Shown piece after piece: positions 1 to 53,399 of a stretch of DNA of 64,000 nt (its first letter is position 1; the number at the start of each line of letters is the position of its first letter). The position numbers were made by a program, and so were the translations under genes. The notes below the pieces were generated by a model that saw nothing but the letters and a program-made list of their open reading frames with translations, was not told the DNA's origin and did no database searches. This DNA comes from Pseudocercospora fijiensis CIRAD86 (Eukaryota > Ascomycota > Dothideomycetes > Mycosphaerellales > Mycosphaerellaceae): assembly GCF_000340215.1 (NCBI RefSeq), contig NW_006921535.1, positions 773,242 through 837,241 of the forward strand, given 5' to 3'.

Positions 1-2075
1 CGTTTTATAAGGTACTCGTAGTAGGCGTTATATAGGGTGTCCGCTAAAAGTAGTTCTAATGCTATTTACTATAGCCTATAGGCGTTTTAGATAGTATTTG
101 CTATAGGCGTTCCGGATAGTGCTACTCGCTATAGATATCTCGGATAGTTACCGCTATAAGCGTTTCGAATAATACTACTCGCTATAAGCGTTTTTAGTAG
201 CATTTACTATAGGCGTTTCAGATATAACTTGCTATAAGTATTCTAAATAGTACTTACTATAGGTATTTTAGAAAGTACTACTTGCTATAGGCGTTCTTAG
301 TAGTACTTACTATTAGCGTTCTATATTAGACTTACTATACGCGTTTCGGATAGTACTTACTATACGCGTTCCGGATAAGACTTAGTATAGGCGATCCGTA
401 TTAGAGTTACTATATAGCGCGTTCTAAATAAAACTTAGTATAGGCGTTATAGATAGTAGTACTAACTGTTAACGCTCCGGATTAGACTTACTATACGCGT
501 TCCGAATAGTACTTAGTATTATAAGCGTTCTAAATTAGAATTCCTATAGTTGTTTTCGATTAAAGTTGCTATAAGCGTTTTGAATTAGACTTACTATACG
601 CCTTGTAGGCAGTACTTGCTATAAGTGTTCCGACTCGGAAAGAACTACTTACTATAGATATTTCGAATAGTACTCGCTATAGGTATTCCGGATAGCAATT
701 ACTATAGGCGCATTCCGGCTCGCTATAGGCGTTTTTTAGGGCACTCGTAGTAGGCGTTATATAGGGTACTTGCTATAAATAGTTCGAATACTATTTAGCT
801 ATAGGCGTTTTAGATAGTATTTGCTATAAGCGTTCCGGATAGTACTACTCGCTTTAGGCCTTCCGGGTAGTACCTAATATAAGTATTTAGTTTCGGATTA
901 GACTTAGACTTACTATATATATTCCGGATAAGACTTTCTATAAGCGTTTTAAATTAGACTTGCTATACGCGTTCCGGCCTATATAGGACTAACTATACTA
1001 AGCGTTTAAAATAAGGCTTATCCTACGCGTTCCGGATAGTACTACTCGCTATAGGTATTCTATAGAGTACTTGCTATAGGCGTTTTATAAGGTACTCGTA
1101 GTAGGCGTTATATAGGGTACTTAGCGCTCGCTATAAGCAGTTCGAATACCTATAATCGTTTCGGATTAGACTTGCTATACGCGTTCCGGTTTATATAGAA
1201 CTAACTATACTAAGCGTTTAAAATAAGGCTTGTTCTACGCGTTCCGGATAGTACTACTCGCTATAGATATCTTAGATAGTTACCGCTATAGGCGTTTCGA
1301 ATATTACTACTCGCTATAGGCGTTTTTAGTAGTATTTACTATAAGCGTTTCGGATATAACTTGCTATAAGTATTCTAAATAGTACTTACTATAGGCATTT
1401 TAGAAAGTACTACTTACTATAAGCGTTCGTAATAGTACTTACTATTACCGTTCCGAATTAGACCTACTATACGCGTTCCGGATAGTACTTACTATACGCG
1501 TTCCGGATAAGACTTAGTATAAGCGTTTCGGATTAGAATTACTATATAGCGCGTTCTAAATAAAACTTAGTATAGGCGTTATAGATAGTAGTACTAACTA
1601 TTAGCGCTCCGGATTAGACTTACTATACGCGTTCCGAATAGTACTTAGTATTATAAGCGTTCTAAATAAGAATCCCTATAAGTGTTTTAGATTAAAATTA
1701 CTATAGGCGTTTTAGATTAGACTTAGTATCCGCCTTATAGGTAGTACTTACTATACGCCTTATAGGTAGTACTTACTATAAGCGTTCTAACTCGGAAAGA
1801 ACTACTTACTATAGATATTTCGAATAGTACTCGCTATAGGTATTCCGGATAGTAATTACTATAGGCATATTCCGGAAGTAGTTACTATAGATATTTAAGA
1901 CTATCTTGCTATAAGCGTTCCTAATAGTGCTCGCTATAAGCGTTTCTAAATAGTGCTTTCTAATATCTATAACGCGTTCCGGATTAATATTACTTTTTAG
2001 TATTAGCGTTTTAGATATAACTTACTATACGCGTTTTAGATTAGGCCTACTATAGGCGTCTAGATAAGACTTTAG
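1..2075. repeat. RIP'd satellite-like array with higher-order repeat
   Basis: Degenerate units of roughly 20-30 bp repeat throughout, built on variants of TACTATACGCGTTCCGGATA. A higher-order copy is visible: the block from about 134 to 715 recurs from about 1266 to 1875 at an offset of 1132 bp, with mostly transition differences and one extra unit in the second copy near 1740-1765. A third marker, ACTCGTAGTAGGCGTTATATAGGG, recurs near 15, 738 and 1095. No coding frame is supported. CpA and TpG are almost absent. Confidence 0.85.
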
Positions 2076-2101
2076 CTACTCGTCGCCTTAGGCTTCTCGT
2101 A

Positions 2102-2128
2102 TAGCTCTTCGAGCTACATAAGCCCTAG
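2102..2128 (+). other. Helitron 3' terminus (hairpin plus CTAG)
   Basis: Hairpin TAGCTC-TTC-GAGCTA at 2102-2116, spacer CATAAGCC, then CTAG ending at 2128 with host T next. The other terminus at 2940-2966 read on the minus strand has the same hairpin, spacer CATAAACA and CTAG. The two ends face each other across an 811-bp host segment (2129-2939). Confidence 0.75.
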
Positions 2129-2255
2129 TAAGGACTAGGAAGGTAGGAAGGGGCATGTTGAATGCGATTACTTTTAGATATATTGACTACATCTTTCTAG
2201 TAAATGAAGATGCTTGCTATTGACGCCGTCGCCAAACACTGCAATAATCCTAAGC
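2129..2255. other. Host 3' flank of the split MFS gene
   Basis: Short stretch between the second Helitron's CTAG terminus and the MFS stop codon. It keeps many TG and CA dinucleotides (for example GGGGCATGTTGAATGC), unlike the Helitron DNA on both sides, so it is host DNA only lightly touched by RIP. Confidence 0.6.
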
Positions 2256-2939
2256 TCACTTCTGCTAATGCGTCTCGTTAATAGCATACTTGCTCTTACT
2301 CCGAATCTAAGGTCTATACTTATAAAACACATATAGCACAGGTATAAGAGGAACCGAAATACAAGCTATAATCGTAATAGTGTAATGTACTCCCAGATTC
2401 TTATAGAAAGGCACGCTAACAATCGTTATAGCTCTAGACGTAACATATCGGATTAAAGTAATAGAAGCTAGAGCGCTCGCGGCGAAAGTCTCGTACGAGT
2501 CGATAATATATTAATAGCAGCTAATAAAGACGCACAAAATCCCGTATCCGAAGAGGACTAATGCTGCTAATAGTAACTAAATGCTGATATGTAGATACGC
2601 TGTCCAAGCTATCTAGAAGAGACTTATAGGGATCGCAATAGAACCGCCTAGCATAGAATACTATAGACGGAATTCTAGAGGTAGACGTAAGCCGCCTTGT
2701 TCTTAGATCTTGGCCAGATCTCGCTTCGCCTATTTGTAAATAATCGGGACGAGTGCTAATGCGCCGCATAGACTAATAATAATGCCGACGAAGCAGACTC
2801 CGGTTAGACCTTGTAAGATTCCGTAGGTGTCCTCGAAGATGTAGGTATATCCGTCTAGGAATGTAAAGAGCACGATATAGATAACTGTAAGGTAGAGTGC
2901 TAGTAGGATAATAATCGGCTCGCGGAATGTTAGGAGGAA
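2256..2939 (-). pseudogene. MFS transporter, C-terminal part, separated and RIP-damaged
   Basis: Reading down from 2939, one frame of 228 codons ends at TGA (2256-2258) with no net indel. It reads FLLTFREPIIILLALYLTVI, then FLDGYTYIFEDTYGI, FGYGILCVFIS and YIIDSYETFAASALASITLI. These are hallmarks of the C-terminal half of fungal DHA1-type (polyamine/drug) MFS transporters. About eight in-frame stops are all TAG or TAA where the family has Trp or Gln, as expected from TGG to TAG and CAG/CAA to TAG/TAA. The first codon follows directly from codon 407 of the N-terminal part at 19640, so this is the same gene split by the Helitron. The 3' end (below about 2300) is less mutated than the rest. Confidence 0.9.
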
Positions 2940-2966
2940 CTAGTGTTTATGTAGCTCGAAGAGCTA
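2940..2966 (-). other. Helitron 3' terminus of the 16.7-kb element
   Basis: Read on the minus strand: hairpin TAGCTC-TTC-GAGCTA (2966-2952), spacer CATAAACA, CTAG (2943-2940), then host T at 2939. It matches the terminus at 2102-2128 except for the last three spacer bases. Confidence 0.85.
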
Positions 2967-5400
2967 TAAGTAAAGGACGAAGTGCTATAAGTAAAGGCTA
3001 AGGCGACGAGCGGGGTAGGGTAAGCTAGATTCTAGAAGATTCCACGGTAGGTATAGCCGTGCCGCGCTAGGTAATAAGGCGGAAATCGTTATAAATCGCG
3101 CTTTATAGATCGCGCGCCTTTCTAATAACAACTTCTTCTACTTACTACTACTTCTACTACTACTACTACTACTACGACTCGTTGCTACTCCCTTTCTATC
3201 TTTACTAAGCTAGATACTATACCTACCCCCTATACTAGCCCTATAGAAACCCCGAGCAAGATCTCGAGCGCTACCGGTAAGTTTAATATTGTCGCTAAAC
3301 CTTTATAACCGCGTCGCTAACAGTGTTAGTAGCTTAAGTATTTAAGGGTAAGGAAGTTATCGATCTCGCCGGTACGTCCTTAGACGAGTCTCCCCCTCGC
3401 TCTACGAAGCGAGTTTTAGTTAAGAAGACCGGCTTTAAGAGGGTCGCGACTCTAGTAAGTCTCGTTTATAAATACATATTGCTAGATATACTAACCCTTA
3501 AAGCTCGTCGTAGGCGAAGTCTTCGTACGTTTCGTTAGCGGCGTAGTACGCCGCCTAACCTTCTACTATACCGTCGTCCTCTAAGACGGCGCTAAGACTA
3601 TCGAGTACTAGTAGTCGCTAGGCACCTCTACTGTTAACGCGCAGTCGAACGCTACCCTCCTAGTATCGGACTTTACGCGAGACTTCGGCGCTAGCTCTCC
3701 TTTCGTCTAGATAGGACCTAGGAATCGATTTGCTATAGGAATCTGTATCGCCGCTGCTCGGAAGAACGCGATAATCTAAGAATAGTATACTAATTAAGAA
3801 GTTAAAAGTTAGAAAAAGCGAGAGGAAATGAGATAAGATATGCTATCTACGCTATAGGGCGCGGACCGATGTATATACTCTACGGAGGTTGGTTAGCTCT
3901 CCGTAAAAAATGAAATCTATAAAGTAACTTACAATCTTCTCGTTCCTATTTTTATCTCGTCTGTCTATATAATAGATATATACTAGGCCTATAATGTCGG
4001 TCGGCGAAGCTAGCAATGTTCAATCTCGCGTTTCTTAGTACGTTACCGCCGTTGTTGCTATTCGTATCGTAGTCGGTTTGAAATGTGTACCTAATCTAGT
4101 TAAGTCTGCTCTACTGCTGCGACGACTCCTATACGAGCTCGCTTACTGTCTGTTTTCCGTATATAACCGCTTACAATCTCGTTAACACTCTCGTAATATA
4201 TATCTCGAATATACTACGTCGGAAACGTAGGAGAATTAGAATACAACAATTCCGCTAGAAACTCGAAGAGTTGCTAGAGCTATACTTCGCTTATACTTCG
4301 CCTAAGTTCTTCTACTTTCTAAGACATGTCCGGGGTAAAGTCGTATTCCTACTAGTAGCTAGTATCCTTAGTAGAGATAGTCTCTTAATATTCTAGGGTG
4401 CTCTCTTCCTATTCGTACTCCGTAGACAGAGGTCGAGTATTCGATTTCGAAGCCCGCCCGCTGTCTTCGAATTCTAGTAATACTACTCTCTTTTGGTTAT
4501 AGTTTATATAGCTAGTATAGCTCCTAGGATCTCCTCTATAAGCGCAATTACTATATAGTAGCTTTAGCGCTAGGTTATAGGAATAACGGCACCCTTCGAA
4601 ATAACTACGGTTAGATTCGCAAGTTCTATATTTCGAAGGAAAGGGACAGTTTAGTATAGCGCAACTTCTAGCGTCTACGCCAAGGATATAGACTAGCGCC
4701 GCTCGCCTCGCTCTCTTGTCGGTACCCTTCTACGTTACGCCTTCTCCTAGTATACGTATATAGCCCTCTCGAAATACTAGATCTCGCCCTTTACCGCTTA
4801 CGATTTTCTTTGCTAGCGCGTAGTCCGTAGTTCTAGTTTCCTAAATTTCACCTTTTTAATATGCTTCTACTACTACTTATACGAACTGTTGCGCGTAATC
4901 CTTTCCCACTTTAGGTACGATATTAAGGCTCGATATTGTATTAGCGCTAGGAGTATAGCAGAGAACCCGAAGAGAAAGGAGGATAACTAAGAGAACTGCC
5001 GGGAACTTAGCTTATATAGACAGGGGATAGGCGGCTAAATAACAAGGTTCTCGGTGCCTCGGAGAAGTAGTAATACGCTAACCGTATTTAGGTAGCTAAA
5101 CTCTATACCTAAAGAGAAAAAAATGCTAGTATAGATAGAGAAGTTTTGTATATATATATTATAGAGAATAACTACTAATCGTAGCCTAAAAGTCTTCTAT
5201 ATCGAAGTCGAGATCTGCGTCTTAAAATATACTAAGGATCTTAGCTTCTTATTCATATACGATAACCGGAGCCTTTGCCTTAGTAATATCGCCTAGCCTT
5301 AGAGTACGAGGTAGCGTTAGAGCGTATAGTATCGAGGTCGGAGTAGAGACTTAAGTGCGGGATACAGGCTTCGAGAGCAATATAGGTTGTCCGGATAGTC
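2967..5400. other. RIP'd Helitron interior, no gene recognised
   Basis: TpA-rich, CpA/TpG-poor DNA between the 3' terminus and the Rep/helicase gene. Both strands are saturated with stops. A (TAC/CTA)n microsatellite sits at 3131-3175. I could not recognise a decayed protein here. The sequence just inside the terminus contains two copies of AGTGCTATAAGTAAAGG-like text (2968-3000). Confidence 0.5.
3131..3175. repeat. (CTA)n/(TAC)n microsatellite
   Basis: A run of CTACTACTACT and CTTCTACTTACTACTACTT inside the Helitron. It is simple sequence with no further structure. Confidence 0.8.
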
Positions 5401-8400
5401 GCTTCCTAGAGAACAAAGGACCTAGAATAGGCGTAGTGTTCTTAAAAATCTATTAGATTGTACGCGCCGTAGATACGGAACGAGGTGTCGGTATAGGTAC
5501 TAGCGTAGGTAGTGTCGACGAGGCCTTAGTTAGATCTGCCTACGCAATCTCCTTCGAAGGTGTTATTTTGCCCGTAACTTGTATTATCTATTAGGCGTTA
5601 CTAGGACCTAGGGCTAAGTTCTAGAGGTAGACTAAGGAGTCGTCTAGTTAGTATCTAGGAAGTTCTACGAATAACGGTCGGCGCGAAGTTTTCGCTAGTA
5701 CTATAGTTAGCGTAGTTTCTCGCTAGCTTAGCTATCGTCCGACTCTAGTATCGACTAACGTCCTATCTTCGTCGTTACCTAGCACGAATGCCCTAGGACC
5801 CCTTTCTACCCTACGCGGAAGGCTGCTATCGCTACCTACTTCGCGGTCTAGACCTACAAAGTTTCGAGTATACTAGTTAGGCTCGTCTTCGGGTTCTATA
5901 GCGTCTCGAGTAGAACCGGTAGGCGGTTTAGCGATTTCGGGAACGTACGCTCGAGGCATGTAGTTAAGTATACCCTACGGGCGTCGCGGTTGCTACGCTA
6001 GTCCGGTAGAGCTAGTAGGTATAGCGTGTATCGCTCCGCGTAATAGGACGTTCGAGGTTATACCTACGAACAGATTTCTATCCTTAAAAATAAAGTCGTA
6101 GAGACGCTTAGGTAGATATAATAGAGCCGAGCGAAACACCTTGTTTAGGGAGTCGCTGCCCTACGTTAAAGTATACTTTCCGTTAATAAGCACGCGGAGG
6201 TTGCATACGTCCGTAACGCGTAAGAATGCTACGAAGAGTTAGCCGTAGCTAAATACGGGCCGTCGAAGGTCGATGCCGATATATACTAGGGATTAACCCT
6301 AAGATTTGTTTATCGTTATTGCGAAACAAGGTCGAAGCGGAAGTTAATATCGCTTAAGGGTGAACGGTAGGCCTTTATTCGAATATATCTAGATTCGCGG
6401 TATCTAGTACACTTCCTAATTATCGTCGTCTAGCAGTTTCCGAACTTTAACCCCGAACTAGAGTGTTTTTACGACGATAACCCGCGTTCCGTTTACGAGT
6501 CCTACGGTCTTATAGATGTTCCGTATAATTATTATTAGTATACCTACCCGGATCCGTAGGCAAGGAATCTAGAGCTCGGTGTTCTAGATAGATTTTAAAA
6601 GGCTTAAGATTTCCGGAGGCTAGTCTTTATTGCTAGGCAACTTCTCTATCTTATCCTCGTAGCGATATTCGCGAATTGTACCGTACGGCAGGTCGTCTAC
6701 GATACGTTCGTTAATCTCGTAGGCGGTGTCGTTCGTTATATAAAGGATAGCTCGAGAACGATAGAATACTAAGTCGTACTTAGCCTTAATAACACCCTAT
6801 CTTAGAAAGACGAAATCGATAAGCTCGCTAAGGTCCTAGACTCTTCCGATATATGTTAGTAGCTTAATAAATCGATCGAATACGTCGTCGTATACAATAC
6901 GGAGGGTCTAGCGGTAGAAGTCGACGTTCCGCGGATTGCTATCTACGAGCCGTATATTTTGCTAGAGATAGAGCACCTTAATCTTATTCTAGATTAGGAA
7001 GGCTTTAAATATAATCGCTATTACGTCTGCTTCCTTCGAAGACTTCTTATACTCGGGAAGCACTAGAAGAGTCTATGCCTAGTCGCCGCCGAATACGACG
7101 GGGACTCCCGCGAAGAATAGTTCGTTACCCTAGCCGTTACTACCTAATCGTAACTTATAAAAGAGTCGATATATAGCTATAATATCGCGTCTATTCTGTA
7201 TCGCGGCTTCGTCCTAAATAACTAGATAAGTCTTTCGGATTAGCTTAGCGTCTATTATGTCTTACGTAATAGGACAGTCCTACTACCCGGTATTGCTTAA
7301 AGGAAGTTTAAATCGGGAGTGCGCTATACGACTACTAGGAAGCAGCTATACGGCGATACCTAAAGACGCGATATACAGTACGATAAGGCTACGTACTCTA
7401 TAGGTCGCTGCGAGTATACGGTATAGGAACGTCTTCCTGTAGCCTCCCGGACCTTAGATAAAAAAGTGCGCCGTTAACGGATTCTAGTCGATATCGTTCG
7501 TAATATCGGTAAAGGCTCGCCTTTGACCGTTATTAAGAAGGTAGGCGTTTTGTTGCATGTAGAGTTTGTTCCCGTCTTCGTTTCCTATATCGACTAGCGC
7601 TTCTTCTTAAGCGATAGCGTTATTGCTACTGCGCATTTTCGCTTACGAAGGATCGGGACTCGGCAGTCTATAGCCCGATACCTTATATCCGTTAGCAACC
7701 AATTCGGTATATAGCTACTACTTACTATAACTTTTAGTAGTAGCATTCATCTCCTTATACCTTCCTACGTAGCCTCCGCGCCGCAGTTCGATATATAGAT
7801 CTTTATATATATCCCTCTATAGAAGACTCTACTATCGCGTAGAGTCGGCTCCGGATATCGCATCCGTTAGGATAAGTAGCACGAATATAAGACGCAATTG
7901 TCGGGAGGTATATATCTTCTCGGCCTCCCGGAACGTATCGAGCTATTTATCTTCCGATCTTATAAGACTAGATACAATCGCTGCCGCTCGAAAGCTCTTA
8001 TATACGGTACCGCTATATATCCTTAAGTCGCGGAAACATTTAGCACCCCGAACGATATAGAGTAATTTAATTAAGTATAGCATCTTGCCTTTAGGACGTA
8101 GGGGCGGGTTAAGACGCGCGATAGAGTACACTACGCGCTTAGAACGTTTCTTCTACGCTTTATTATACAGCGTATAGTGTTTTAGAAACTTAAGATACGT
8201 TAAGCGCTAGCAAGACACGTCGTTGTCTAGTAGTAACGCGTTATACCGAAACTACGCGACGAGCGTAGTACGTTATCGTCTATCGCCGCGTAGGTCCGCT
8301 ATCGTCGCGTTATAGTTAAATACGATATTACCCTTAGGGCGCGGTAGGTAGACGTCTAGTCGAATAACCGCGGGCTATTCTTTATAGCGCTTGCCTCCTA

Positions 8401-10650
8401 AGATGTTATATATCGCTATCGTAGGACTAATATATCGTATATTAACGTAGTTAGCGATCTCGTTGCCGGGAATCTCGAGGCGGGCAGTCGCACGGTCGGC
8501 GCCCTTATAGACGTACTTATTAATGTATTTAATCGCCCGTAATAAGCGGACCTGCTCGACGTTAATATAGGCGTTAAACCGCTTTAGTAGGTATAGATTG
8601 TACGGTACGATATAACGATTATCGAAGAGGAACGCGCGATTCCTCCTCTTATTCTATATCCTCCTATTACGGCGTCTACGATATTTCGGAAACGCGATGT
8701 TAGTTACTACCGTCTCGTCCGAGAACTCTATAGGGAATCCCTTAGAACACGTCCCTTCGGAGTGTCGAGGTAACTGTATATACGGGACGTATAGAAAGCC
8801 CGCGCTATAAGGTCTATAATATATATGTTCCTTAACTAAGTTCGTTACGCTGCTATCCGGGTCCTCGGCTAGGCTCGGAAGCTTAGCGCGGATGAAGTTA
8901 TCGATCTTAGATACAGTATCTAGCGCTTAATAGGGCGCGATCTATAGTAAGAGGTAAAGGTAAGGGAGGCTACGCTTCTAGTATTCGACCGTCTAATATC
9001 TCGCGATATAGCGACCGAATACGTTCCTATAGTAGACCTCGTACAAAAACTCCCTAGCTTTCTAAATAAAGACCCTTATCGTAATGTCCGGGCGGTCTAT
9101 CGCGTCCTAATAGTCGAACAAATAACGCTTAATCTCCGGCTAGTTAGGGTTAGCCGTAAACGTAATAAAGTACGTAGGGACGCCGAAGTAGCCGACGATA
9201 GCTATAGAATCTCGGTAGCACTATAAAATCTACCGATCGCCGCCGACGTACGAGGACGGGAGAACTATTCGTAGAGCTTATAGGATGCTATCGGATAATA
9301 GAGCCCCGTTCGTAGGGACGACTAAACGGTTCCGCTATAGCAAACCGTAACGTACGCTTCCCTCGCATTCCCCGTACTATACCTTAGTTCGAAGAACATC
9401 GTAACGTAGGTCTTCGCTAATCTATCGAGACAACTCTCGTTAGATGTCGTATTTATTCTTATTGCCTAATAGTGCGCGCGTGCTACGCTGTTTTGGTTGT
9501 TTTAAGTCGTACGTATCCGCCTATACTTCTTTCTAATAGTTACCTAGGAAAAGCAGGTCGTTTAAGTCTACTACAGTATATACGTCGACGTACAATTGTT
9601 ATAGGAGCCGGCGACCGTAGAAGATAGTAGGAAATTGGTTTAGTCGATAGTGCAAAATATACCTAAAGTAATCCCTAAGCGTAACGTGCCTCCTACTACG
9701 CGTACGAAATTGGTTCTCCTACGAAAACCTAGGAGTTCTAGCCGCCTAGAGGAGGACGTAATATATAAGGAAGTAGTATAGATAGTAGCGATTTATACGA
9801 TATAGAGTAGTAGACACCTCTCCCGTACTTAACCGCTCTGCTACTATAAAATCCCTTATTCCGCTAATAGCTTCCGGATCGTAATCCGGATAGAGGGCGG
9901 CTACTTCGTTTACGACCGGCTTATTATATCGACGCGCGTCCTATATACCTTCGTAGACCAAACTAAGGTCTATAGCCTTAAGAACGAGGCGCCTAGGTCC
10001 TTAGGAGGATATAAACATTTCCCGAGCCGCGACGAACTTATAATACAGCGCGTTGTATTACGTAATTATCTCATATAACGCGATTATAGTGCCGTAGTCT
10101 AGCTACGGCGATAGTACAGATTTCTGGTTCCGGCTAGCATATCTACGATCGCCGGATTTCTATATACGCCTCTTAGTAGTATATACGGGGTCGTAAAAGT
10201 ATAGCTACGCGTATTAGGGATCTTCCGTCGGAGCGAAGAGACCGCTACCTAAATAATACGCTTCCCCGTAGATCTAGAACGAACTATACCCTAATACCCG
10301 TATATTACGCTTAGCTATAAACGAAGTTATTGCGAGGCGGTAATTATAGGCTCGAATGTTCTCCTAGAACGTTCTTGCTTCTATATCCTTAGATAGGTCT
10401 ATAGTAAGCAGTCGCCGCAGCAACGGAGGTAGTTTAGGGATCGGAAACATACCTTTTACCGCGCCGCTACCGCAATATATTATAAATACTATACCGTTCT
10501 TATCTGTAGAAGAAGACGGTTTACTATCTACTCGGACGTTCGATGCTTTACGGATCTAATACTTAGCTTAACAGTATTAGCAGGTATACACTATATCGCT
10601 AATATTAAGTATTACTACCTTGTATAGTATCGAGACATACGCCTTAGGAA
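5400..10650 (-). pseudogene. Helitron Rep/helicase (RepHel), RIP-decayed
   Basis: Six family motifs read in one minus-strand frame (first codon base congruent to 1 mod 3), so there is no net indel over more than 4 kb. N-terminal Cys-rich segment at 10590-10390 (CGSGAVKG..FPIPKLPPLLRRLL). Rep core YFGVPTYFITFTANPN then stop at 9190-9129. HUH region LPYLYLLL at 8968-8945, where both catalytic His codons read TAC (Tyr). Pif1 Walker A GPGGYRKTFLY at 7453-7421, Walker B I-stop-DEAA near 7213, FGGD near 7100. Motif VI ITINKS-stop-G-stop-S, then VYIGIDLRRPVFS, at 6320-6240. The frame appears to run on past the helicase to about 5.4-5.6 kb as an unidentified C-terminal extension. Rolling-circle transposase activity is family knowledge. 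This copy is dead: many TAG/TAA stops at former Gln/Trp positions and no catalytic HUH. The start is not identifiable. Confidence 0.9.
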
Positions 10651-13600
10651 GAGTAGACCTCTCCGGGCGTAAGAGGTCGGCGTTAGTAGCCTGCGATCGA
10701 CCTAGGCTACGGTACGCCTCGGCGACCGCCGTAGGGAGGGTGTTATAATCGTTTAGACGTTTAAAAGATATCCGCCCTAGAGAAGGCTAACTAGCTCGTA
10801 CCTAAGGACTAGAACCGCTAGCTCTAGCCCTACTAGTAGGGGCAGTAGTAGTGTCCGTCGGTATTGCTCTAGGGGTAAAAAGAAGGCTCGGTAGAAGTAG
10901 CGGTTAGATAGGCCCTAGCGATAGAGCTATAAGCGCGATAGAGCTACTATTCTTAATTAAACTCGTAGAGTTAGCGTTATAGGAAGGCTCCGTAAATTCA
11001 ACGTCTATCGGTCTAGAAGGATCGAGAAGGTCGCCGAAGTCGTAGTAATTATCGAAAGCGTCTAGACCGTATTTATTAGGAACCTCTATATCCGGCAGCG
11101 TCGGACCTTGCCTCTCGGCGTCCTATATAACGGTGTCTCTAGGCAAGATAGACTAATCGTCCTAGTTATAGTCGCGACCTATCGGACTTAGTAGAGTATA
11201 GATGCTAGAAGCGCCGCTTGCTAATATAGATATAGAATCGGACCTACGACTAACGCTCGGAATTATAACGGTAGGTAAACTCTACGCCGAATGCGACAAA
11301 GGAGATAGTATTAGACGTAACGGGTCGACAGTGTATAACTCGTACGTAGGCGGAGTATAGGGACGCTTAGCAGATAAAGATATAAGAAAGGGGGAACGAT
11401 CGGATAGCGTTTTAGATAAAACACCTTACGTATATAGCGATAATGCGCTAGGGAGGTCGCGCGTCGTCCCTAACGCCTCTAACGTATCGTTAACGACAGG
11501 ACTTGCTCGACGTAACCTAGGTAATAGTCCGGTAGATGCGTCGTCGTACGCTAACTATAGATATATAGCATTAGAATCGTAGTTGCTACGGGTAGAAAGT
11601 TAAGCTTTCTATTAAAGTTAGGGAATGTTATCGCTCGAATGCTAACCTACGCGCTAATATACTACTAGAGTATAGACCCTATAGAATCGTCCGTTCTTCC
11701 TCTAGAAGTTAGACACTAGTTTAACGATCTAATAGAATTTGCATTAACGCAGTTCGACTACTAGTCTAGGAGCGGGACCGGTAACGGGAACACGGTTATA
11801 CGGAAACGATAGCCTAGCGGAAGATTAGGAGATACCCGCTCTATACTTCGTCTTTTTATCTCTATACGATATCGTTTAGAACGGATTATCGTCTTATACG
11901 ACGTTTATCCCCGTCGATATTTTAACTAGTAATAGGGAACTAGATCTCCGCTTCGGCTTCGGCTGTCGTTACGAACGCCGTAACTTAGATAGACTGTCGT
12001 CCGATGTTAGGTTAATCGTAAAGTCGGGCGGTACGAAAGAGCTAGGTATTGCTCGCTTCTTACCTTTCCTCGCGCTCTTTATATCCGGTAGCGTAAGCAT
12101 CGGGCGCTTAGATCTAGAAGAAGATAGAGTAGATAGAGAAGATATTTTAGGTAAGGAAGAGCTAAGCGAGTACGCCGTACTATAGAGTTCGAAGAATCGC
12201 GGCCTTTCGTACGAAAAGCGAGGTAATTACGACGTACTATTAGTAGACCGACGACATCGAGGCGTCCTTATATACTACCTCTCGGAGATAGGGACAATTC
12301 TAAGAGCGAGCCGTTGTTTTCTCGTAGAGATCGTCGATAATATAAGCGTTAAGGTACGCCTCGGAAATTAGGATCCTAGAGCGGTATAAGGTATACGAAT
12401 CGTAAAGAGTCGATATTAGGGATCTCGGTTAGAAGGGACCGCGGCTATTAGCCTACCTACCTCTAATGCTTACTAGTCCTAAGTTGTTTGTAGATAGAAT
12501 AGCTAGATATTCGATATTACGAAAGAAGTCTAAGATCTAGGGAGGACGAATCGCGAAGAATCGATAGCGGAGACCCTAGTTAGGAGGGCCTATACGATTA
12601 GTGCTTGCTTACGAATCGTAATAATTCGGAAATTAATACTAGGAAGTTCCTTTAACGGAGCTAGTTAGATTATTAGAATCCGTAGATTAGAAGATTCCTA
12701 GATCCTAAGATAGTATTAGCGGAGTATATAGATTAAATAAAGGTTACCTAGAATGCTACTCCTATACGAGCCCTCGAGATCTAGTTTAGACAAATTATCC
12801 CTAACTAGTTAATCAAATCTAGGGTATATAGTTTGCGAGAGTAGTAGGATACTCGCCGGCCGAGATTACGGAGGAGGACTAAGTACGAATAGTAGGTTCG
12901 TATAGGGTAGTTCATATAGAGGGGAGAGAGAGACCGAGAGTATTCGGTAGATAGGCGCCTCTTTAACCGATCCTAAGAAAGCTCTACGTTTACCGGCGTA
13001 ATCTAATCTTACGTAGTATCGATCTCGTAATTTCTCGACGCGGAAAGGCTATAGGCACCCTATAAAGCGCCTAAAGTTAGGAGACTAGTAGGATAGCTGC
13101 TAGATTCCTTAGGCGTTAAGTAGATTGCTCTATACGGGTCCTACCGGGAGTACTATCCTCTAGTCGCCGATTATTAAAGAGAGATGCGTATATAGCTAGG
13201 GGCTATTTAGAAAACTAGATCCTACTAGAGCTAGTAGTGTTAGTAATAGCCGATTAGAGGTATTAGGCGAGGACGCCTATAACTCGCCTTTAAGCGTCTA
13301 AGACATTAGCTCGCTAAACGATAGTCCGGCATGTCTAGAGATAGTGTCGTAGGCGGCGGATACAGAGGATTTTAATATAGAAGAAGGTAAAGAAGCTACA
13401 ACGGTGCCTACTACGCCTAAAGGAAGGCAGATCGCGGTTAAATATATAGACTAAGCGCCGGTTAAGACTGTGCGTTCTAGGAGGGCAATTTCGGTATCAA
13501 AGGCCTAGATTAGCGACACAGTACGTATACGCTAGCTCGGATAGTGTGTTCTTCGGCTTGATTTCCCGTACTCGGCGCTCTTAAAGAGCGATGTTCGTTC

Positions 13601-15008
13601 GGGTAGTATCGCGCAATTCTAAAGACCTTTATTTCGAAACCCCCTAGTCCTAAGTATATCTCGAAGTAATATACGCGACGCGTATACGTAGCTGCCTGTT
13701 TGTTTGTGTACGTAACGCGATCTAGAAGTAATATATTAACGCGATTGTTAATACGAACTTAGAGCGCGATACGGACATTAACCGTTATTCTATCGACCGC
13801 CGCCCTTCTATATACTTTATATAGTCTAGTACGACTATTTCCCCCTCGATTTCCTTCGCCGATACTATTATATTAGCGATTGGAACGCGCGCGATAGTAG
13901 ACTAGGAGGACGTCGATTTTACAGCTATTTAGTAGTAGGAGCTAAACTTCGCCGCTAAGTCGCTTCGTAACGAGAACAACGGCGTTAAGCCGGAGACTAG
14001 CTCTATCTTCGATCGCCTAAGGGAGAACCGTAGAATAGGCCGGTAACCGGACATAGCGTATCGCGATAACCGCCGCTACGATATATACGCTAACGAGATC
14101 GTAATAGCGGTTAATAGAAGGATAAACGCGAAACTAGATACTAAGTTTGTAAGTATTAGCGCTGTATATAGATATCGAAACTAGAGCTAATAGTAACTAG
14201 ACGTACTAGTACGAAATAGTAGACGGCGGCGTAGTCGAGCTTACCTTTTAGCTAAAGGACGATAGCTCTCCCTACCCCTTCGATCGTTATAACTTCTTAG
14301 AGGCAGATAGCAAGATTCCGGCCCTAAAGAGATTCGTAAGTTAGCCCGTCGGGAAGGATTGCCTATTTTTAATCTCGTACTAACCTCTATAGGCTCGGAT
14401 AGGTATATTAGGGCGAGCTCCGTTTCCGGACTATCGCCGTAGAAGACTACCCCCTCGCCGAATACCCCCTCCTACTTCTCGTATACCCTGTCCTCGACCC
14501 GCGGTCGCCTTCCTTCGAATTAGTAGGCAAGGTGTAGCTATTCTATACCTTCGACCCGAGGTAGCTAAGCTATATCTCGACTAGCGGACCCGGCACTAAT
14601 CTAACCCTACCTAGCAAATAGGCCCGCCTGTTCTATTTTCTAGTAGAAGGTACTTAAGGCCTCTAATACAATATTACGTTCCGCTCTATATAAGATAGGG
14701 AGAATAAGTATCGGCCCTAGATATTAGAGAAGGCGTAGAATAAGGCTAGCTTTAGATATACGGACTAGCAACCTAAGATATTATAGAAGTAGGGAGTTAG
14801 CGACGTATACCTAAAGGCTATTAACGAGCTAGAGTTTAGAGGTAATTAACGGCCGTATCTAAAGATATCGCGATTCCGGTAGCACCTAAATCGGTAGAAA
14901 TAAAATAAAAATAGTCTTACCCTTACCGTCGCCCGTATCTAACTATATATTTTACTCTCCTCTCCTATACTCGCTACTACCGCGAAAATTGCACCGACCG
15001 CGTACGCC
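10651..15008. other. RIP'd Helitron cargo, unresolved
   Basis: Dense TpA-rich DNA upstream (minus sense) of the Rep/helicase. Short coherent coding traces exist, for example a + strand frame near 13890-14220 (LNFAAKSLRNENNGVKPETS, then RDNRRYDIYANEIVIAVNRR) with stops at likely Gln/Trp codons. I do not recognise the protein, nor whether it is Helitron cargo or a nested element. The N-terminus of the Helitron protein may extend into the left part. Confidence 0.4.
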
Positions 15009-15285
15009 GCTAATCCTCTATTTACTCCCTACTCTTTCGGCGTCGCGAAATGCTAGTAAGACGTATCGATCCGCGCTATCCTAACGGCGAAAAGGGAGTC
15101 CCTCTCCTAAACCTCGCCCGCTCCTCGCGTCGTCTCCGCTAGTCCTCTATTTACTACCTACGCTTTCGTCGTCGCGAAATACTAGTAAGACGCATCGATC
15201 CGCGCTATCCTAACGGCGAAAAGGGAGTCCCTCTCCTAAACCTCGCCCGCTCCTCGCGTCGTCTCCGCTAATCCTCTATTTACTC
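15009..15285. repeat. 129-bp tandem repeat, two copies plus a partial third
   Basis: Copies start at 15009, 15138 and 15267, each with GCTARTCCTCTATTTACT. Copies 1 and 2 differ at only a handful of positions; several differences are C/T or G/A. The period (129 = 43 codons) keeps a reading frame, so it could be a repeated protein segment, but no protein is recognised. Confidence 0.85.
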
Positions 15286-15410
15286 TCTACCGATACTATA
15301 TATACTCCTATAGCGAAGAAAGGCGAGGTCGGATAGGAGCGGCTTTATAATACGTAACCGGAGCTAAGCGAGCGGGGACGCTTATAGCCGCTACGTAAAT
15401 AGAGACCTCT

Positions 15411-15601
15411 AGCTAATTAGGTAGTCCTAAAGGTTATACTCTCGCTAGTTATTTAAAGCTAGCCCTAGTTAGCGAGATACCGAACTATATTCGCTCGAAT
15501 ATATTAGCCGACCGTACCTTTAAGGGTGCGGTAAAATTAGTATAAGGCGATCTACGATCTGCTAAATCGTCCGGATAGGGGGTTCAATTCCCTTATTAGC
15601 T
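15411..15601 (+). pseudogene. tRNA-like element 1 with perfect B box
   Basis: GGTTCAATTCC (15581-15591) fits the tRNA B-box consensus and sits in a GGGGGTTCAATTCCC stem-loop like a T-arm. It is followed by ATTAGCT (15595-15601), which pairs with AGCTAAT at 15411-15417 as a 7-bp acceptor-like stem, then a short T run (15606-15616) like a Pol III terminator. The 191-nt span is far longer than a tRNA, so a tRNA-derived SINE or a tRNA with an insertion is more likely than a working tRNA. Confidence 0.45.
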
Positions 15602-15650
15602 ATACCTTTTTTTTTTAATCTATATAATAATCTATATTCTGTAACCCTCT

Positions 15651-15770
15651 AGCTAATTAGATCGGTTCTAGATAGTAAGAGTTATTCGCTCGTAGTCCTT
15701 ATAGAGACACGGGGTAGCGACTAGCGAGGGTATAACTTTTAGTATTAGAGGTTCGAATCCTCTATTAGCT
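15651..15770 (+). pseudogene. tRNA-like element 2 with perfect B box
   Basis: GGTTCGAATCC (15750-15760) is an exact B-box match inside a T-arm-like stem (AGAGGTTCGAATCCTCT). AGCTAAT (15651-15657) and ATTAGCT (15764-15770) again form a 7-bp acceptor-like stem. The span is 120 nt. No convincing anticodon arm was found; RIP may have changed it. It lies 50 bp after element 1 and shares its terminal stems. Confidence 0.45.
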
Positions 15771-15804
15771 ATCCTTTTGCGCTCGCGTAAGGCGGCTAGC
15801 TATA

Positions 15805-15905
15805 GCCGCGAATTCTAGAGTTCCTGTACGTGATTTTCCCCGCATCCGGGAGCTGCCGCGCTAAGCGGGAGCGCCTGCGTGTTTTAAGGATACTAGAACT
15901 TTATA
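15805..15905. other. Patch with little RIP inside the Helitron
   Basis: This stretch keeps TG and CA (for example CCCGCATCCGGGAGCTGCCG and GCCTGCGTGTTTTAAGG), unlike the DNA around it. It contains a GC-rich inverted element (CCGCGCTAAGCGGGAGCGCC). It could be a late insertion or a segment that RIP did not reach. Confidence 0.4.
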
Positions 15906-15919
15906 TATATAAAAAAAAA

Positions 15920-16211
15920 CCCCTAGCCTTCTAAGGTGCGTGCTTTCTTATCTGTACTAAGACGAGATAGAGACTAAAACCAAACGTGTCGGTCTATCTA
16001 GGGCCTCTAACTTGTCCGGTACCGCCGTCTATTTAGAGAGCGTATTGTCTTTACGCGTAGCAAAACCCCTAGCCTTCTAAGGTGCGTGCTTTCTTATCTA
16101 TACTAAGACGAGATAGAGACTAAAACTAAACGTGTCGGTCTATCTAGGGCCTCTAACTTGTCCGGTACCGCTGTCTATTTAGAGAGCGTGTTGTCTTTAC
16201 GCGTAGTAAGA
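15920..16211. repeat. 146-bp direct tandem duplication
   Basis: CCCCTAGCCTTCTAAGGTGC starts at 15920 and again at 16066. The two copies are nearly identical through TTGTCTTTACGCGTAG; the few differences seen (CTGTA/CTATA, CCAAAC/CTAAAC, CGCCG/CGCTG, GTATT/GTGTT) are all transitions, consistent with RIP acting on a duplicated unit. Confidence 0.9.
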
Positions 16212-19200
16212 ACGAGATGCAGCTTTAAATATACCCTACGCGCCGCTACGCTATCGAAGACGTCGCGTAAGGGCAAATTACGGCCTAGAGACGATAACAA
16301 GTACAGAAAGTTTATAGACTAAAGGAGATAGATTGCTCTACCTACGATACCGTACTTAGGCTCCTCCGCCTTCTTTCTAAGTTACGATAGCGTCTGTCTC
16401 TAGGGCGCGAGCACCGTGCTTATAGCAGTCCTAAGGAAACGTACTACTCTCCCGTTCCTATATATATCTCTAGACGATAAAACTCTCTATTCCTACGCCC
16501 TATATTAAGGATTACTATCGCGTCGTCCGTATCGATTTAAGTATAACCGAAATTAGCCGCATTCTATACTAACTATAGCCTCCTTTTTATATCGAAGTCC
16601 CTTCCTGCCTCTACGTCGAAGAAGTCGTAGTATTTAATATAGCTATCGTTTCGCGGAAAGTCGAAGAGTTAGTTATATTATAGTAAAGCATCGATAGCGC
16701 TAGGAAGACAGATTTCCTCTAACAACCGTAGGTCGCACCTAACTAGGACCCTCTATACAAAGGTGCTATCCGTTTAGCTCGTTATAGTAGGATACGCGCG
16801 TAGAGGAACGACGACGAAGCGATCTATACCGAACGGCTATATAGTAGCAAGCTTTATCTACGCGAATTCGATCTAGAACCGGTTAGCAAAAGCGCTATAT
16901 TCTTAGGGTACGCGACGGATATACCTAGCGACAATACCGAGGAAATAGCGAGTTAGACTTTTAGAGGTACAGTCTTAGCTCGAACTCGTCGAGTTCGTCG
17001 AGCCTATTAGTATTCGTATATAGATTAACGTAGACGATAGATCCTTCTATTTACTCTTCCCGTTACGCCTAAGTAGTAATAACGTTAAGGTTACCGTCTA
17101 GGTACTTATCCTACGACTACTTAGGTACGGAGATCTATAGGAGTTAGCTTTCTACTACTATATACTAGACGATATGCGAGAATACGTACTACGTATTCTT
17201 CGTCCCGAGACTCCGTCCGCTAGTAGATCTTATTTATAACTAGAGATACCAATCTCGATATATGCCTAGACGGCCGGTAATCTATAACGCCGTAGTACGG
17301 AGGTTTAGGAGAGAAGCCGTTATTCTTGTCTATATTACGGTTCTCGCGTACGCGGCGCAATACCTTCTTAGTAACTAGCTTATATATGTCTTATAGCGCT
17401 TCTTAATATACCGGGGCCCGGCCCGTAGCGAGTAGTTAGCGAAGTCGTATAGAAGCGCGAGGGTGCTTAATCTCGGCTATAGCGCGATTCAATTCCTAAT
17501 ATTAAAAGGCTCGCTACGGTATACTATATAGAACGTCTATCTCTATAGCTCGATATTAGCGAAGGTAGCGTACGGCGACCGATACGCTAGAGACTTACTA
17601 TTAGGGAGGGCTATAGTAGCTAAGACCGTATAGGAGGGGCGCCTTTATCGAGGTCGCTACTAGTAATATCGACAACTAGAAGGAGGTAGATATAGCTACG
17701 TAGAAGTAGTCGCTATATTAGTTATTATAGTAGTAATGTTTAGACGACGCGTAACGCCGCAACATTACTATTTGTATACGTAACCGTCGCTACGCGCTAA
17801 GCCTATACTAGCTAATAGATATAAAGCGACGATATAAAGCGACGATATAAAGCGACTCGCGATAACAATAACGGTCTCTCGCGACGCGACGACGAACACT
17901 CGACCTTGCGCTTACTACTCTAGCTTAGATCCTACTACTATAACGTCGGTATCGTCGCTAGGGAGGTATTAATACGAACGAAGTCGTTAAGGACTCGAGT
18001 TAAGGCGAAGGAGCGCGTCGTCTACCTCTAGCGGTATAATTCGGTAAGATATGTCTTCTAGAGCTATAAATTTATATCGTATCGAGGGATATAAAAAGAT
18101 GTCCGTTAAGTAGATAGTACGCTAAAAATCACAACAAATGTACTAAGATTATCGTAGATTTCCTTCCGTAACCTCCCTAAATACTATATTCTCCCTTACG
18201 CTCGGTACTACGATTGCCCGCGCCTTAGTTTATTATAACGCTCGACTCGCTACGATACTCCTCTAGCGGGGCGAGACCGAATAATAATAATAAAGGCTTT
18301 CGCCGGACGGGAGCGCTATATATAGTTAAGAGACAACTCCGCGTCGCTACCTAGTCGAAGCCTATACCGTTACGGAGGAGCCGGAAATAGTCTAAGAAGT
18401 AGGTTATCTTAGCGTACTTATCGCTAAACAGGGCCGGGAGCTATACCGTCCGTTCTTAATCGCGAGTAGTACTCTCTAAGAGCAAGGCGACGCTAATACT
18501 ATAGCCGGATATCGTATCGAATTAATACTAGATCTCGAGGACCTTTATAGCCGCCTTATTAGCGACGTCGTTATAGAAAAGGCTAGTAGCGATATAAAAC
18601 ACCTTAAGAGGCTTCGCGATAGTCGATCCTTCTACTAGCTGCGATTCGAATATCTATCTAAGGTCTAGCTTCCGAGGGACGATACTAAACGAAGGAAATA
18701 AGCCGAACCGCCGTAGATCGAGAATCCTCTATAGCGGGCTAAGTAGTAGCGAGTCTTACTATATCTTCGTAAAGAAAACTACCGACTTTTACGGTAATTC
18801 CTACTAAGTACCGTAAACCTCCTTATACTAGAATTGTTAGCCGCTATATCGGGGTACGACCGCTACCGTACTACTTACTATAGCTTTCTATACCTCGGAC
18901 CCTTTAAGACCTTAATCTTAAGCGTACGTCTTCGCGAGTATTACGGTAGGCCTCGAGAGACTGCGATAGGTAGTTAGTAGCGGGCCCTCGTTAGATCTAT
19001 ACCGGTACGACGCGAATAAGTACCTAGCGGCTAGGGAAGTTAGATCGAGGTCGGTTCTAGTAGAGTCTATAATAGTCGATCGCGATATTAGGTTGTTATA
19101 GTAGCAATTAATAACCGCGCGCCTACTAAAGTCGTTATATCTCCGGACGTAGGCGCGTTATACGCGGCTGCTATAGTCGTATACGTAACGCGCGCCTTCC

Positions 19201-19545
19201 TTAGGACTCGCGAGCGAAGGATACCGCAATTTCGTATAGCTTCTCGAAGGCCGTAGAGGTCGATAGAGCTACGATAGCGACTAAGAGGGTCGATAGTATT
19301 GTATTTATAAGACCCCGATAGCGGAGCTCGCGATAGTAGGGCCTCGGTACCGGTCGTACGTACTAAATTACGCTTCCTATAGGGCTACTAGCGCGATCGA
19401 GTATACCGCTTCGAGTAAATACCGCCGGATAAGGTATATACGACGAAGACGCCCTTTTCGAGACTACTATCGAAGTTATAGCTCGTCGCGGTATATACTA
19501 CGACGTCTACGCCCTTCCGAATCGCTAAGGTATTAACGTTCCTCG
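16212..19545. other. RIP'd Helitron cargo near its 5' end, unresolved
   Basis: TpA-rich DNA with stops in all frames. A + strand coding trace is visible near 16612-17030 (YVEEVVVFNIAIVSRKVEEL; later YTERLYSSKLYLREFDLEPV, FLGYATDIPSDNTEE) with TAG/TAA at probable Gln/Trp sites. I cannot assign the protein. A 13-bp triplication lies at 17818-17856. Confidence 0.4.
17818..17856. repeat. Three tandem copies of a 13-bp unit
   Basis: GATATAAAGCGAC is repeated three times without interruption. The function is unknown. Confidence 0.9.
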
Positions 19546-19639
19546 CGTCCACTAATTAGAGGCCGCCGTTGGCCCGTTTTAAGCCGCACTAAGCCTAAAG
19601 GGGCCCCAACTTTTGTTAAGTTGTCATATTATTAATAGA
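19546..19639 (-). other. Helitron 5' terminal segment
   Basis: On the minus strand the element starts TCTATTAATAATATGAC at 19639, next to host A at 19640. The last ~95 bp keep TG/CA dinucleotides (for example AACTTTTGTTAAGTTGTCAT on +), so RIP fades before the boundary. A GGGGCCCC palindrome lies near 19602-19609. Confidence 0.75.
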
Positions 19640-20860
19640 TAGACGATAAAGTGCACGGCTGAGTCGAGAAGCCAACGAGTCCTGTCGGACTTCGATCGCA
19701 GCCCGGTATCTGTCGTCGCCAGTAATTGCTCGGAGATGCTCTGCTTTCCATTTCAGCAGCGTCTGAGGGTATGTTTCGGGCTGGAATAGGACTACTAATC
19801 CTAGTACTAGACCTGAAATTATCAACGTGATCCATTCGACCCAGCGCCAGGACAATCGGTCGGATTGTGCAATGTATCCTCCTACAATTGGACCTAGCAA
19901 CGGGCCGGTGAATGCCGCGTTCGCAAAGACTGGGAATGCATAGACGCGCTCCAGAGGGTTCCACATATCAGAGATGCTCCCGCCAGCACAGGTCAAAGGC
20001 GTGGAGCCGAAAAGTCCGGCAAAGAATCGCAATGTGAGCTGGGTCTGGATATTTGGTGCCAGGCCACATCCCATGATGAACAGCATATAAATCGCCAAAG
20101 TCGCAATATAGACCGGATTCCGTCCTACAGTCTCACTAATCGGTCCGGCAAATAATGCACCGCATCCGAAACCGATCAAGAAGAGACCGGTAGCCATTGA
20201 CTCGACCACTTCAGCCACTCCAAACTCTGCCGCTGCTTGGGGAAGAGCGCTACTGTCAATGGCGCTGGCTAGTCCGACCACACATCCGATCGATGCTACG
20301 ATGGAAGTACATCGAATTCGCTTGAGCATAGTCCAGTTGTGAGGATCGCTGGGATCATCTGGTCCTTCGTAATCGACGACGAACACTTGTCCGTCGCCTC
20401 CTTCGATCGTCTTTCGTTTTCGTACTTCGATTCCTGTGAGGACTTGACCTAGACGGACGCCAGCACTTTGCTGCGTTGAGATCCTGGAAAGGGCGCCAGT
20501 GGTGCGATGGGCTGCCAGCTCGTAATCGTCACCGTCGTCATCGTCGTCTTGCTCCTCAGCGGTTGGAGTGTCCTCGGCAGGTTCTTGATTGTCGTCCTTC
20601 TCAGCTGCAGTATTGCGAAGGACATGGTTAGGATCCCGTCTGCCCTGAGGTTCTAGTACTGCACTGCTAGTGGCAAACTCGCCTCGTTCAATGTCTTTCT
20701 CTAATTCATGTTTGCTGTGGTCTGAGGTGGTCGATTGCGGCGAGTCTGGTTGGAGCTCTGGACGTCTTCCCGTCCGCAAAGCCTGTGCTTTTGCGCGATC
20801 TCTTTCTAGTTGTGCTTCGACTGTAGTTTTGAATCTCTTGTATTGTAAGAAGGACTGCAT
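19640..20860 (-). pseudogene. MFS transporter, N-terminal 407 codons, cut by Helitron
   Basis: ATG at 20858-20860. Residues 1 to about 170 are a long hydrophilic, acidic N-terminus (run of Asp near 105-112). This leads into DPSDPHNWT and six predicted membrane segments: GCVVGLASAID, SMATGLFLIGFG, GPISETVGRNPVYI (motif A region), ATLAIYMLFIMG, FANAAFTGPLLGPIVGGYIA and ITLIISGLVLGLVVLF. The central loop PETYP..LLKWKAEHLR..TGDDRYRAA is typical of fungal DHA1 polyamine/drug antiporters. Codon 407 (CTA, 19640-19642) is followed by Helitron DNA, giving only seven foreign residues before a stop. The rest of the gene is at 2256-2939; the intact protein would be about 634 aa. This half is not RIP-damaged. 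A truncated six-helix product is unlikely to transport. Confidence 0.9.
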
Positions 20861-48404: not shown

Positions 48405-49740
48405 TAAGTCCGTTTCGGCAAATGTAATCTCGCTTGCGGGACGCACCATACCACACAATTCAGGCCGATTCTGCAACAAGACCTTCCCTTGCCGCGTCTA
48501 CGACCAGCGCGGTGTATACCTAAAGCAGGAGTTCTGCCGAGGACTAAATTCGAAAAGGCGGTGTTGGGTTGTGGACGATTGTTCTCACCGATTCCTTGGA
48601 ATACGTCAGGGTTCGAAAATTGTGCAATGTGCACACAGACAGAAAGTCAGGCCGGACGTGCACGCCAGATAGGCTCAGCCGTAGGTGAAGAGTTCAATCA
48701 ATCGCAGTTCACGAATCGATGAAAAGTCCAAAATCGAATCGGCCGCATTTTCTTGTTGCCTTGCTTTCCCGACAACCTACTTTGCTGACAAGAAAGCATG
48801 ACTAATCTACTGACGCCAGCCATCATATCCAAGCTTTTCGCCAGCATTGAGACGCAGATATGAAGCGGCGTGAAAGTGCGTTCTCCACACTTTTTCCCGC
48901 GACTTGGGCGGAGGCAATCAAGTTATGATCGATATCACTGGAGAAAAAGCAATACTGATACTCTCAAACTCACTCTCAGCCGTGACAGCCAAGTCTCGCG
49001 CGAGACTTGCTGCCCTGTTACAGTGAGCTGTAGACGCGGGCACGGAGCTTGGGTCCATCAACGCAGAAAGTAATACCAAATCCAGAGTCCTGCAGTGCCG
49101 GCAGATTCGAGCAGAAGGCGGTCAACGTAGTCAAGCAAGCTCCTGAACTGGCCCCGAGAAAGGAAGCGAGGTATATTTATACTGACCAAGAATGCGAGGG
49201 TGGTGAACCGCCACGGCGGCTAGGTTTGCAGCGGCGGCTTGTCCACTTCCATGGTTGTTTACAGGCCATATATGGACCGCTAAAAGAGGTATCAAGGAAG
49301 CGCGCCTACGCCGCTTAGACAGCTTATTCACAGAGAGTATAACAGGGCATGACTCATGCAGTTTGACCATGGCTCCACATTGTGCCTCGGGTTGGACAAC
49401 CATTGAAGGCCAAGAACTTCGGTTTTCTTTGCGGCCTCACGTCAGGCTATCCTTGCGACCATAGTCCTTGGCTCTTCGAAGCTGGACACCAAACCGTCTT
49501 GTCATTGCTTCAAATGCCACACGCTATGAGAAGGATCTCGCAACTCGCAGAGCAAGGCGCTCCAGGCTGAAGGAGGCAGTGGTTCAAGTTTTAGACGCTT
49601 TGACGCGTACACAAGCCCTTCACCCCCCTTCACAAGTTGTACGGTTGCTAGGCCAGACATGCTAGCTAGAGCGCGCTCTCTCTCTCGAGTGTCAGAAGAG
49701 AGATATAAGTATATCAACCTAAACAAGGGTGTAGATCGCG
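48405..49740. other. Intergenic, right edge of the gene-rich segment
   Basis: Normal composition up to about 49735, where RIP'd DNA begins abruptly. Contains the un-mutated copy of a short repeat (49208-49290) and a CT-rich CGCTCTCTCTCTCTCGAG run near 49673. No gene is supported. Confidence 0.5.
49208..49290 (+). repeat. Un-RIP'd copy of an ~80-bp repeat
   Basis: Begins CCGCCACGGCGGCTAGGTTT and ends ACCGCTAAAAGAGGT. Its partner lies at 49741-49820 in the same orientation. Here the CpA/TpG sites are intact (CCACTTCCATGG, TTTACAGG, CCATATATGG). Confidence 0.85.
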
Positions 49741-53387: not shown

Positions 53388-53399
53388 AAGAAAACAGCC

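What the first reader, a model, noticed from the sequence alone, without database searches (positions are those of the whole stretch)
2940..19639. A 16.7-kb Helitron splits an MFS gene at base resolution
The minus strand shows A|TC at 19640/19639 and CTAG|T at 2940/2939, with the expected 3' hairpin 8 nt before CTAG. Host sequence joins across it as CGT CTA | TTC CTC, restoring one frame (407 + 227 codons) of a DHA1-type MFS transporter with conserved text on both sides (SRALYR then FLLTFREP). Helitron ends are usually hard to place; here a disrupted gene gives both ends independently.
Basis: partly seen in the sequence, partly recalled or inferred. Interest (0 to 1): 0.92.

Follow-up and report, generated by a model that had tools for sequence, protein, structure and literature searches.

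The report
Helitron transposon interrupting a fungal transporter gene
A 16.7-kb rolling-circle transposon (Helitron), heavily mutated in the pattern of the fungal repeat-mutation defence, sits inside a membrane-transporter gene of the banana pathogen Pseudocercospora fijiensis, and the broken gene shows where it went in to the base, apart from four leftover bases at one end.

Summary
Confirmed in substance, with two corrections. The window lies in Pseudocercospora fijiensis CIRAD86. On the minus strand a canonical-looking Helitron (Rep and PIF1 domains, 3' hairpin, 8 nt, CTAG) interrupts an MFS transporter gene. Searched apart, the two gene pieces fall on adjacent residues in 112 of 112 homologues hit by both (8 more were hit by one piece only), so the host ends at 19640 and 2939 are right. 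The 3' element end (2940) is right too: in 39 collected family 3' ends the base after CTAG is T in 39. The family start, seen in the closest copies and in head-to-tail junctions, is at 19635, now TT as repeat-induced point mutation (RIP) would leave it. Four bases (19636-19639, TCTA) lie between and repeat the last four host bases. The gene is not one open frame: the 3' piece holds 8 in-frame stops. A second, 8.06-kb relative ends 811 bp away, facing it. The family is a recent burst (copies differ almost only by transitions), and 12 of the 39 3' ends directly abut another family 5' end. It is a well-resolved member of a known kind.

The parts
2940..19635 (-). Helitron, autonomous type, RIP-degraded (family-defined extent)
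   Evidence: Family copies and ends; domains
2940..2943 (-). 3' terminus CTAG, followed by host T at 2939
   Evidence: next base T in 39 of 39 collected ends
2952..2966 (-). 3' hairpin, 6-bp stem and 3-nt loop, 8 nt before CTAG
6467..6601 (-). Pif1 2B domain (PF21530)
   Evidence: E 5.5e-8, stops read as X
6935..7537 (-). PIF1-like helicase (PF05970)
   Evidence: E 1.1e-30, stops read as X
8948..9274 (-). Helitron Rep domain (PF14214), profile positions 80-190, 7 TAG inside
19636..19639 (-). TCTA, neither coding in homologues nor part of the family start; repeats host 19640-19643
19640..20860 (-). MFS transporter gene, 5' piece, codons 1-407
   Evidence: PF07690 E 3.4e-25
2256..2939 (-). MFS transporter gene, 3' piece, 227 codons plus stop, 8 in-frame stops
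1..2128 (+). 3' part of a second, 8,062-bp Helitron (C4:767308-775369) with 25-bp minisatellite; hairpin 2102-2116, CTAG 2125-2128

Best explanation
A canonical-type Helitron inserted between an A and a T inside the coding sequence of an MFS (DHA1-like) transporter gene of P. fijiensis, cutting it after codon 407. A shorter relative (8.06 kb, with 25-bp minisatellite) inserted 127 bp beyond the gene's stop, facing the other way. RIP then mutated both elements and, more mildly, the 811 bp of single-copy host DNA between them. Shown: gene continuity, 3' end, Rep/Hel domains, family burst, RIP pattern. Inferred: rolling-circle mechanism, order of events, loss of transporter function. Open: four bases at the 5' junction, most likely a local duplication of the last four host bases, otherwise a copy-specific 5' extension.
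For: Adjacent residues in 112 of 112 homologues hit by both pieces. Single locus for both halves at high identity. Hairpin, 8 nt, CTAG; base after CTAG is T in 39 of 39 collected ends. Rep, PIF1 and Pif1_2B in one frame. At least 12 copies with both ends 16.3-16.7 kb apart (hand pairing). A precedes the family start in 16 of 26 independent host junctions. Nearest copies differ by 55 transitions and 0 transversions in 1450 bp. CA+TG per 100 bp: element 2.6, trapped host 7.3, gene flank 13.4.
Against: The element's 5' dinucleotide is TT here, not TC, and four unexplained bases lie at that junction. No empty allele was seen. No open Rep/Hel frame is left in this copy (7 TAG in the Rep match), so activity cannot be judged. 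A precedes the start in only 16 of 26, so A|T is a preference.
Confidence: 0.93

Rival explanations
1. The four bases TCTA are part of the moved unit: in this copy the 5' end was taken 4 nt upstream at another TC, so the element is 16,700 bp and the reader's A|TC is its true terminus.
For: It starts with TC after an A, as the Helitron rule asks. L017 and L010 show 9 extra bases that look like a repeat of the family start. Multiple 5' termini are in print for Fusarium Helitrons (PMC5148889 section 10).
Against: The closest copies (L015, L022 at 0 transversions; L011, L016 at 2) lack the four bases. A|TC 2-10 nt upstream of the family start occurs in 7 of 26 junctions against 6 and 3 of 26 in control windows. 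TCTA equals the four host bases before it.
Confidence: 0.35
2. Assembly artefact: the element or one gene piece was misjoined.
For: The element is repeated in this genome, and repeats can be misjoined; no reads were available.
Against: This copy is distinct (55 or more transitions in 1450 bp to its nearest copies), and both junctions lie at family ends with the two halves of one gene outside.
Confidence: 0.03
3. The 3' gene piece is a captured or duplicated fragment carried by a mobile element and not the gene's own 3' half.
For: Helitrons are known to capture gene fragments (PMC6431247 passages); the piece lies between two Helitron 3' ends.
Against: It is single copy, lies outside both elements' CTAG ends, runs to the homologues' own C-terminus and meets the 5' piece with no residue lost or gained.
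Confidence: 0.03

Closest known systems
Canonical Helitrons, e.g. Helraiser/Helibat1 of bats (PMC4778049, passages)
   Same: 5'-TC in relatives, CTAG-3', hairpin near the 3' end, Rep plus helicase, insertion between A and T with AT not absolute
   Different: 16.7 kb; 8 nt between hairpin and CTAG (11 in Helraiser); this copy is RIP-degraded; about 8.3 kb at the 5' side without a recognised domain
Pleurotus ostreatus HELPO1/HELPO2 (PMC4289320, passages)
   Same: Fungal Helitrons with AT insertion, CTRR end and hairpin, up to 13.7 kb
   Different: Basidiomycete families, some transcribed and with captured genes; here a RIP-degraded ascomycete family
Fusarium oxysporum FoHeli, Helitron2-like (PMC5148889, passages and section 10)
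   Same: Ascomycete Helitrons with Rep/Hel, occasional tandem copies, multiple 5' termini
   Different: FoHeli have asymmetric terminal inverted repeats; here the TC/CTAG/hairpin ends of the canonical kind
P. fijiensis Helitrons as counted in PMC13041039 (passages)
   Same: Helitrons 2.7% of this species' genome
   Different: No description of this family or insertion in the passages seen

Membership tests
Helitron (canonical, Helitron1-type) | Rep plus PIF1-type helicase on one strand | tested here: met
   PF14214, PF05970, PF21530 in one frame, stops read as X
Helitron (canonical, Helitron1-type) | 3' CTRR with subterminal hairpin | tested here: met
   CTAG, hairpin 8 nt before it; same in family copies
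Helitron (canonical, Helitron1-type) | 5' TC | tested here: inconclusive
   Relatives start TC; this copy TT at the family start, or TC if the four extra bases belong to it
Helitron (canonical, Helitron1-type) | Insertion between A and T, no target site duplication | tested here: met
   Host A at 19640, host T at 2939, no residue duplicated or lost in homologues; TCTA repeat on the 5' side only. Family: T after CTAG in 39 of 39, A before the start in 16 of 26
Helitron (canonical, Helitron1-type) | Rolling-circle transposition | not testable with these tools
   Mechanism inferred from family membership
Helitron2/Helentron | Asymmetric terminal inverted repeats | not tested
   No dedicated search for them was made
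MFS transporter | MFS_1 domain | tested here: met
   PF07690 89.1 bits, cut-off 33.4
DHA1-type drug:H+ antiporter | Match to a DHA1-type family model | tested here: inconclusive
   TIGR00880 and Bcr/CflA models are the best NCBIfam matches but below their cut-offs; substrate unknown

The most novel reading that the evidence does not exclude
This Helitron family goes preferentially, to the base, directly behind the 3' end of a resident family member (CTAG|TC junctions). Twelve of 39 collected 3' ends are followed at once by a family 5' end, and in 9 of the 12 the downstream body is not shown to be the window element's type, so arrays would grow by self-targeted insertion, or by repeated read-through of a composite, and not only by rolling-circle concatemers.
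Probability: 0.4. Interest if true: 0.55.

Novelty: new member of a known kind. Interest (0 to 1): 0.35.

Why it matters
It gives both host ends of a fungal Helitron insertion independently of the element, from a gene with many uninterrupted homologues, and it shows a limit of family alignment: the element's family start and the gene's end differ by four bases. It explains why the public model (MYCFIDRAFT_2811, 'partial') stops where it does. RIP-type change in 811 bp of single-copy DNA trapped between two facing copies, against nearly clean outer flanks, is a clear case of RIP reaching beyond repeats. Otherwise it is an ordinary transposon interruption of one gene in one strain.

Tried and rejected
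A systematic 5' extension (an A|TC a few bases upstream of the family start in each copy) was suggested by eye and then tested: 7 of 26 junctions against 6 of 26 and 3 of 26 in two control windows, so it is not supported as a rule.

Head-to-tail arrays as concatemers only: not enough by itself. Of 12 junctions the downstream body is the window element's type over 1450 bp in 3; in 7 it matches only at about 70-84% over its first 86-237 bp (one of these read over 198 bp only); in 2 it matches only over the first 157-215 bp (one read over 288 bp only). The upstream type was not determined for the 12.

An earlier, stricter pattern counted 38 distinct 3' ends and 8 tandem junctions, with contig coordinates, gives 39 and 12, and I use. 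Loci L045, L065 and L066 gave no hairpin match and are not among the 39.

Captured genes in the 5' half: no Pfam match there in six frames with X at stops; the plus strand of the 3' half gave none either. RIP may hide them. A tblastn of the 5' gene piece against plasmids gave matches below 60% identity, none over 80% of the query; not used.

Full report
WHERE IT IS. The window is G000:C4:773242-837241 of a 73.9-Mb assembly in 30 contigs. The best database match to the 5' gene piece is 'MYCFIDRAFT_2811, partial [Pseudocercospora fijiensis CIRAD86]' on a contig of 6,264,405 bases, which is the length of C4. The organism is therefore P. fijiensis CIRAD86, a banana pathogen (PMC3562529 abstract start). 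The element is strongly RIP-like: CA+TG 2.6 per 100 bp against 13.4 in the neighbouring gene part.

THE GENE. The minus-strand frame 20860-19640 encodes 407 codons with an MFS_1 domain (E 3.4e-25). Its named relatives include proteins that sources call efflux pump kojT or cercosporin transporter CTB4; these are automatic names. DHA1-type models are the best NCBIfam matches but stay below their cut-offs; the substrate is unknown. The 3' piece (2939-2256) has 8 in-frame stops before its natural end. The pieces were searched apart. One search found 1004 homologues of the 5' piece among 7998 scored candidates and listed the best 120; all 120 were tested. 112 were hit by both pieces, and in 112 of 112 the projected place of the 3' piece's first residue directly follows that of residue 407; the other 8 were hit by the 5' piece only. 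In this genome the P. fuligena homologue matches this locus at 93% and 85% (and 77% at its N-terminus), the next paralogue at 47%, and the stretch 2129-2939 is single copy. The gene therefore fixes the host ends at 19640 and 2939. The public gene model ends with the residues that precede the insertion, at codon 406.

THE ELEMENT. On the minus strand lie a Rep domain (8948-9274), a PIF1 helicase (6935-7537) and a Pif1 2B domain (6467-6601), in one frame with stops. The 3' end is hairpin, 8 nt, CTAG. From the loci I collected 39 distinct 3' ends. The script found each end by the hairpin motif and the next CTAG, so CTAG itself is partly by construction; the free observation is that the next base is T in 39 of 39 and that what follows differs between places. 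The collection is not complete: one search finds 58 hairpin-type ends at up to 2 mismatches and none for the reversed control pattern. Pairing rows by hand gives at least 12 copies with both ends 16.3-16.7 kb apart (one of them without a recognisable hairpin). Over the first 1450 bp, 22 of 27 aligned rows have a nearest copy at no more than 2 transversions but 55-99 transitions; the window copy and its nearest differ by 55 transitions, 0 transversions and 0 gaps. That is a recent burst followed by RIP. The other five rows are diverged or rearranged (L018, L032, L035, and L033 and L034, which are one place). About 8.3 kb at the element's 5' side match no Pfam family in six frames.

THE 5' END. 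Other copies start T(C or T)AATAATAT, TCTATAATAT or TCTAAAATAT, with rarer variants. In 11 of the 12 head-to-tail junctions such a start with TC or TT follows CTAG directly; the twelfth starts TATAATAT. The window's closest copies (L015 and L022 at 0 transversions; L011 and L016 at 2) start T(C/T)AATAATAT with unrelated bases in front. That places the family start at 19635, where this copy has TT, as RIP of TCA would give. Between it and the gene's last base (19640) lie four bases, TCTA, for which the homologues leave no room and which repeat the four host bases before them. I favour a small local duplication; a copy-specific 5' extension is the rival. A general extension rule was tested and not supported.

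THE SECOND ELEMENT. On the plus strand the same hairpin and a CTAG end at 2128, followed by T. The 5' end found upstream is C4:767308, giving 8,062 bp, with long runs of a diverged 25-bp repeat. Its first 237 bp are 70% identical to the window element's. The two 3' ends face each other across 811 bp of host DNA. That stretch has 7.3 CA+TG per 100 bp, between the element's 2.6 and the gene flank's 13.4, while the outer flanks are nearly clean: RIP-type change reached single-copy DNA trapped between two repeats.

HEAD-TO-TAIL ARRAYS. Twelve of the 39 collected 3' ends are followed at once by a family 5' end. In 3 of 12 the downstream body is the window element's type over 1450 bp, in 7 it matches at about 70-84% over its first 86-237 bp only, in 2 over the first 157-215 bp only. 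Tandem Helitrons are in print for bat, Drosophila, rice and maize, and one case of three copies in Metarhizium (PMC5148889, passages). The phenomenon is known; its frequency in this family may be of interest. Composite read-through and insertion behind a resident copy were not told apart.

LITERATURE. For P. fijiensis I saw Helitrons given as 2.7% of the genome, with Helitrons and Gypsy-type elements making up the two families above 200 copies (PMC13041039, passages), and one general mention in PMC3562529 (passages). The searches listed 4 and 10 papers; I read passages of these two, and nothing I saw describes this insertion. A Fusarium survey states that most fungal Helitrons it identified group with Helitron2 (PMC5148889, abstract passage), whereas the ends here are of the canonical kind. 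A review gives 6-7 kb as typical and up to 14 kb for fungi (PMC6431247, passages), so 16.7 kb is large. Helraiser has the same TC/CTAG ends and A|T target, with AT not absolute (PMC4778049, passages), in line with A in 16 of 26 here.

VERDICT. A true and nicely resolved Helitron insertion in a gene, ordinary in kind, with a four-base puzzle at one end.

Noticed in passing
window 1-2128 and L087:4067-10000: A second Helitron of related type, 8,062 bp, plus strand, with long arrays of a diverged 25-bp repeat; its 3' end faces the first one's across 811 bp.
   Followed up: partly
12 places, e.g. G000:C1:7091349/7091350, C1:6277461/6277460, C6:3669867 and C6:3678268: Head-to-tail Helitron junctions with CTAG directly followed by a 5' start; C6 holds two junctions 8.4 kb apart, that is three elements in a row.
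   Followed up: partly
window 2129-2939: Single-copy host DNA between two facing repeats has about half the CA+TG of the flanking gene, as if RIP leaked into it.
   Followed up: partly
L010 and L017 (C1:7372080, C1:6294013): Nine extra bases that resemble a repeat of the family's own 5' start stand before it in two copies.
   Followed up: no
window 15007-15284 and 15916-16206: Tandem repeats of 129 bp (2.2 copies) and 146 bp (2 copies) inside the Helitron's 5' half.
   Followed up: no
window about 49500-64000: A second long RIP-like block (CA+TG strongly reduced, TA/AT about 2), content not examined.
   Followed up: no
G000:C1:6674438-6675022 (+): The best Rep (PF14214) match of the genome lies in a 1146-codon open frame without stops and covers profile positions 1-190, unlike the partial match (80-190) in the window element.
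   Followed up: no
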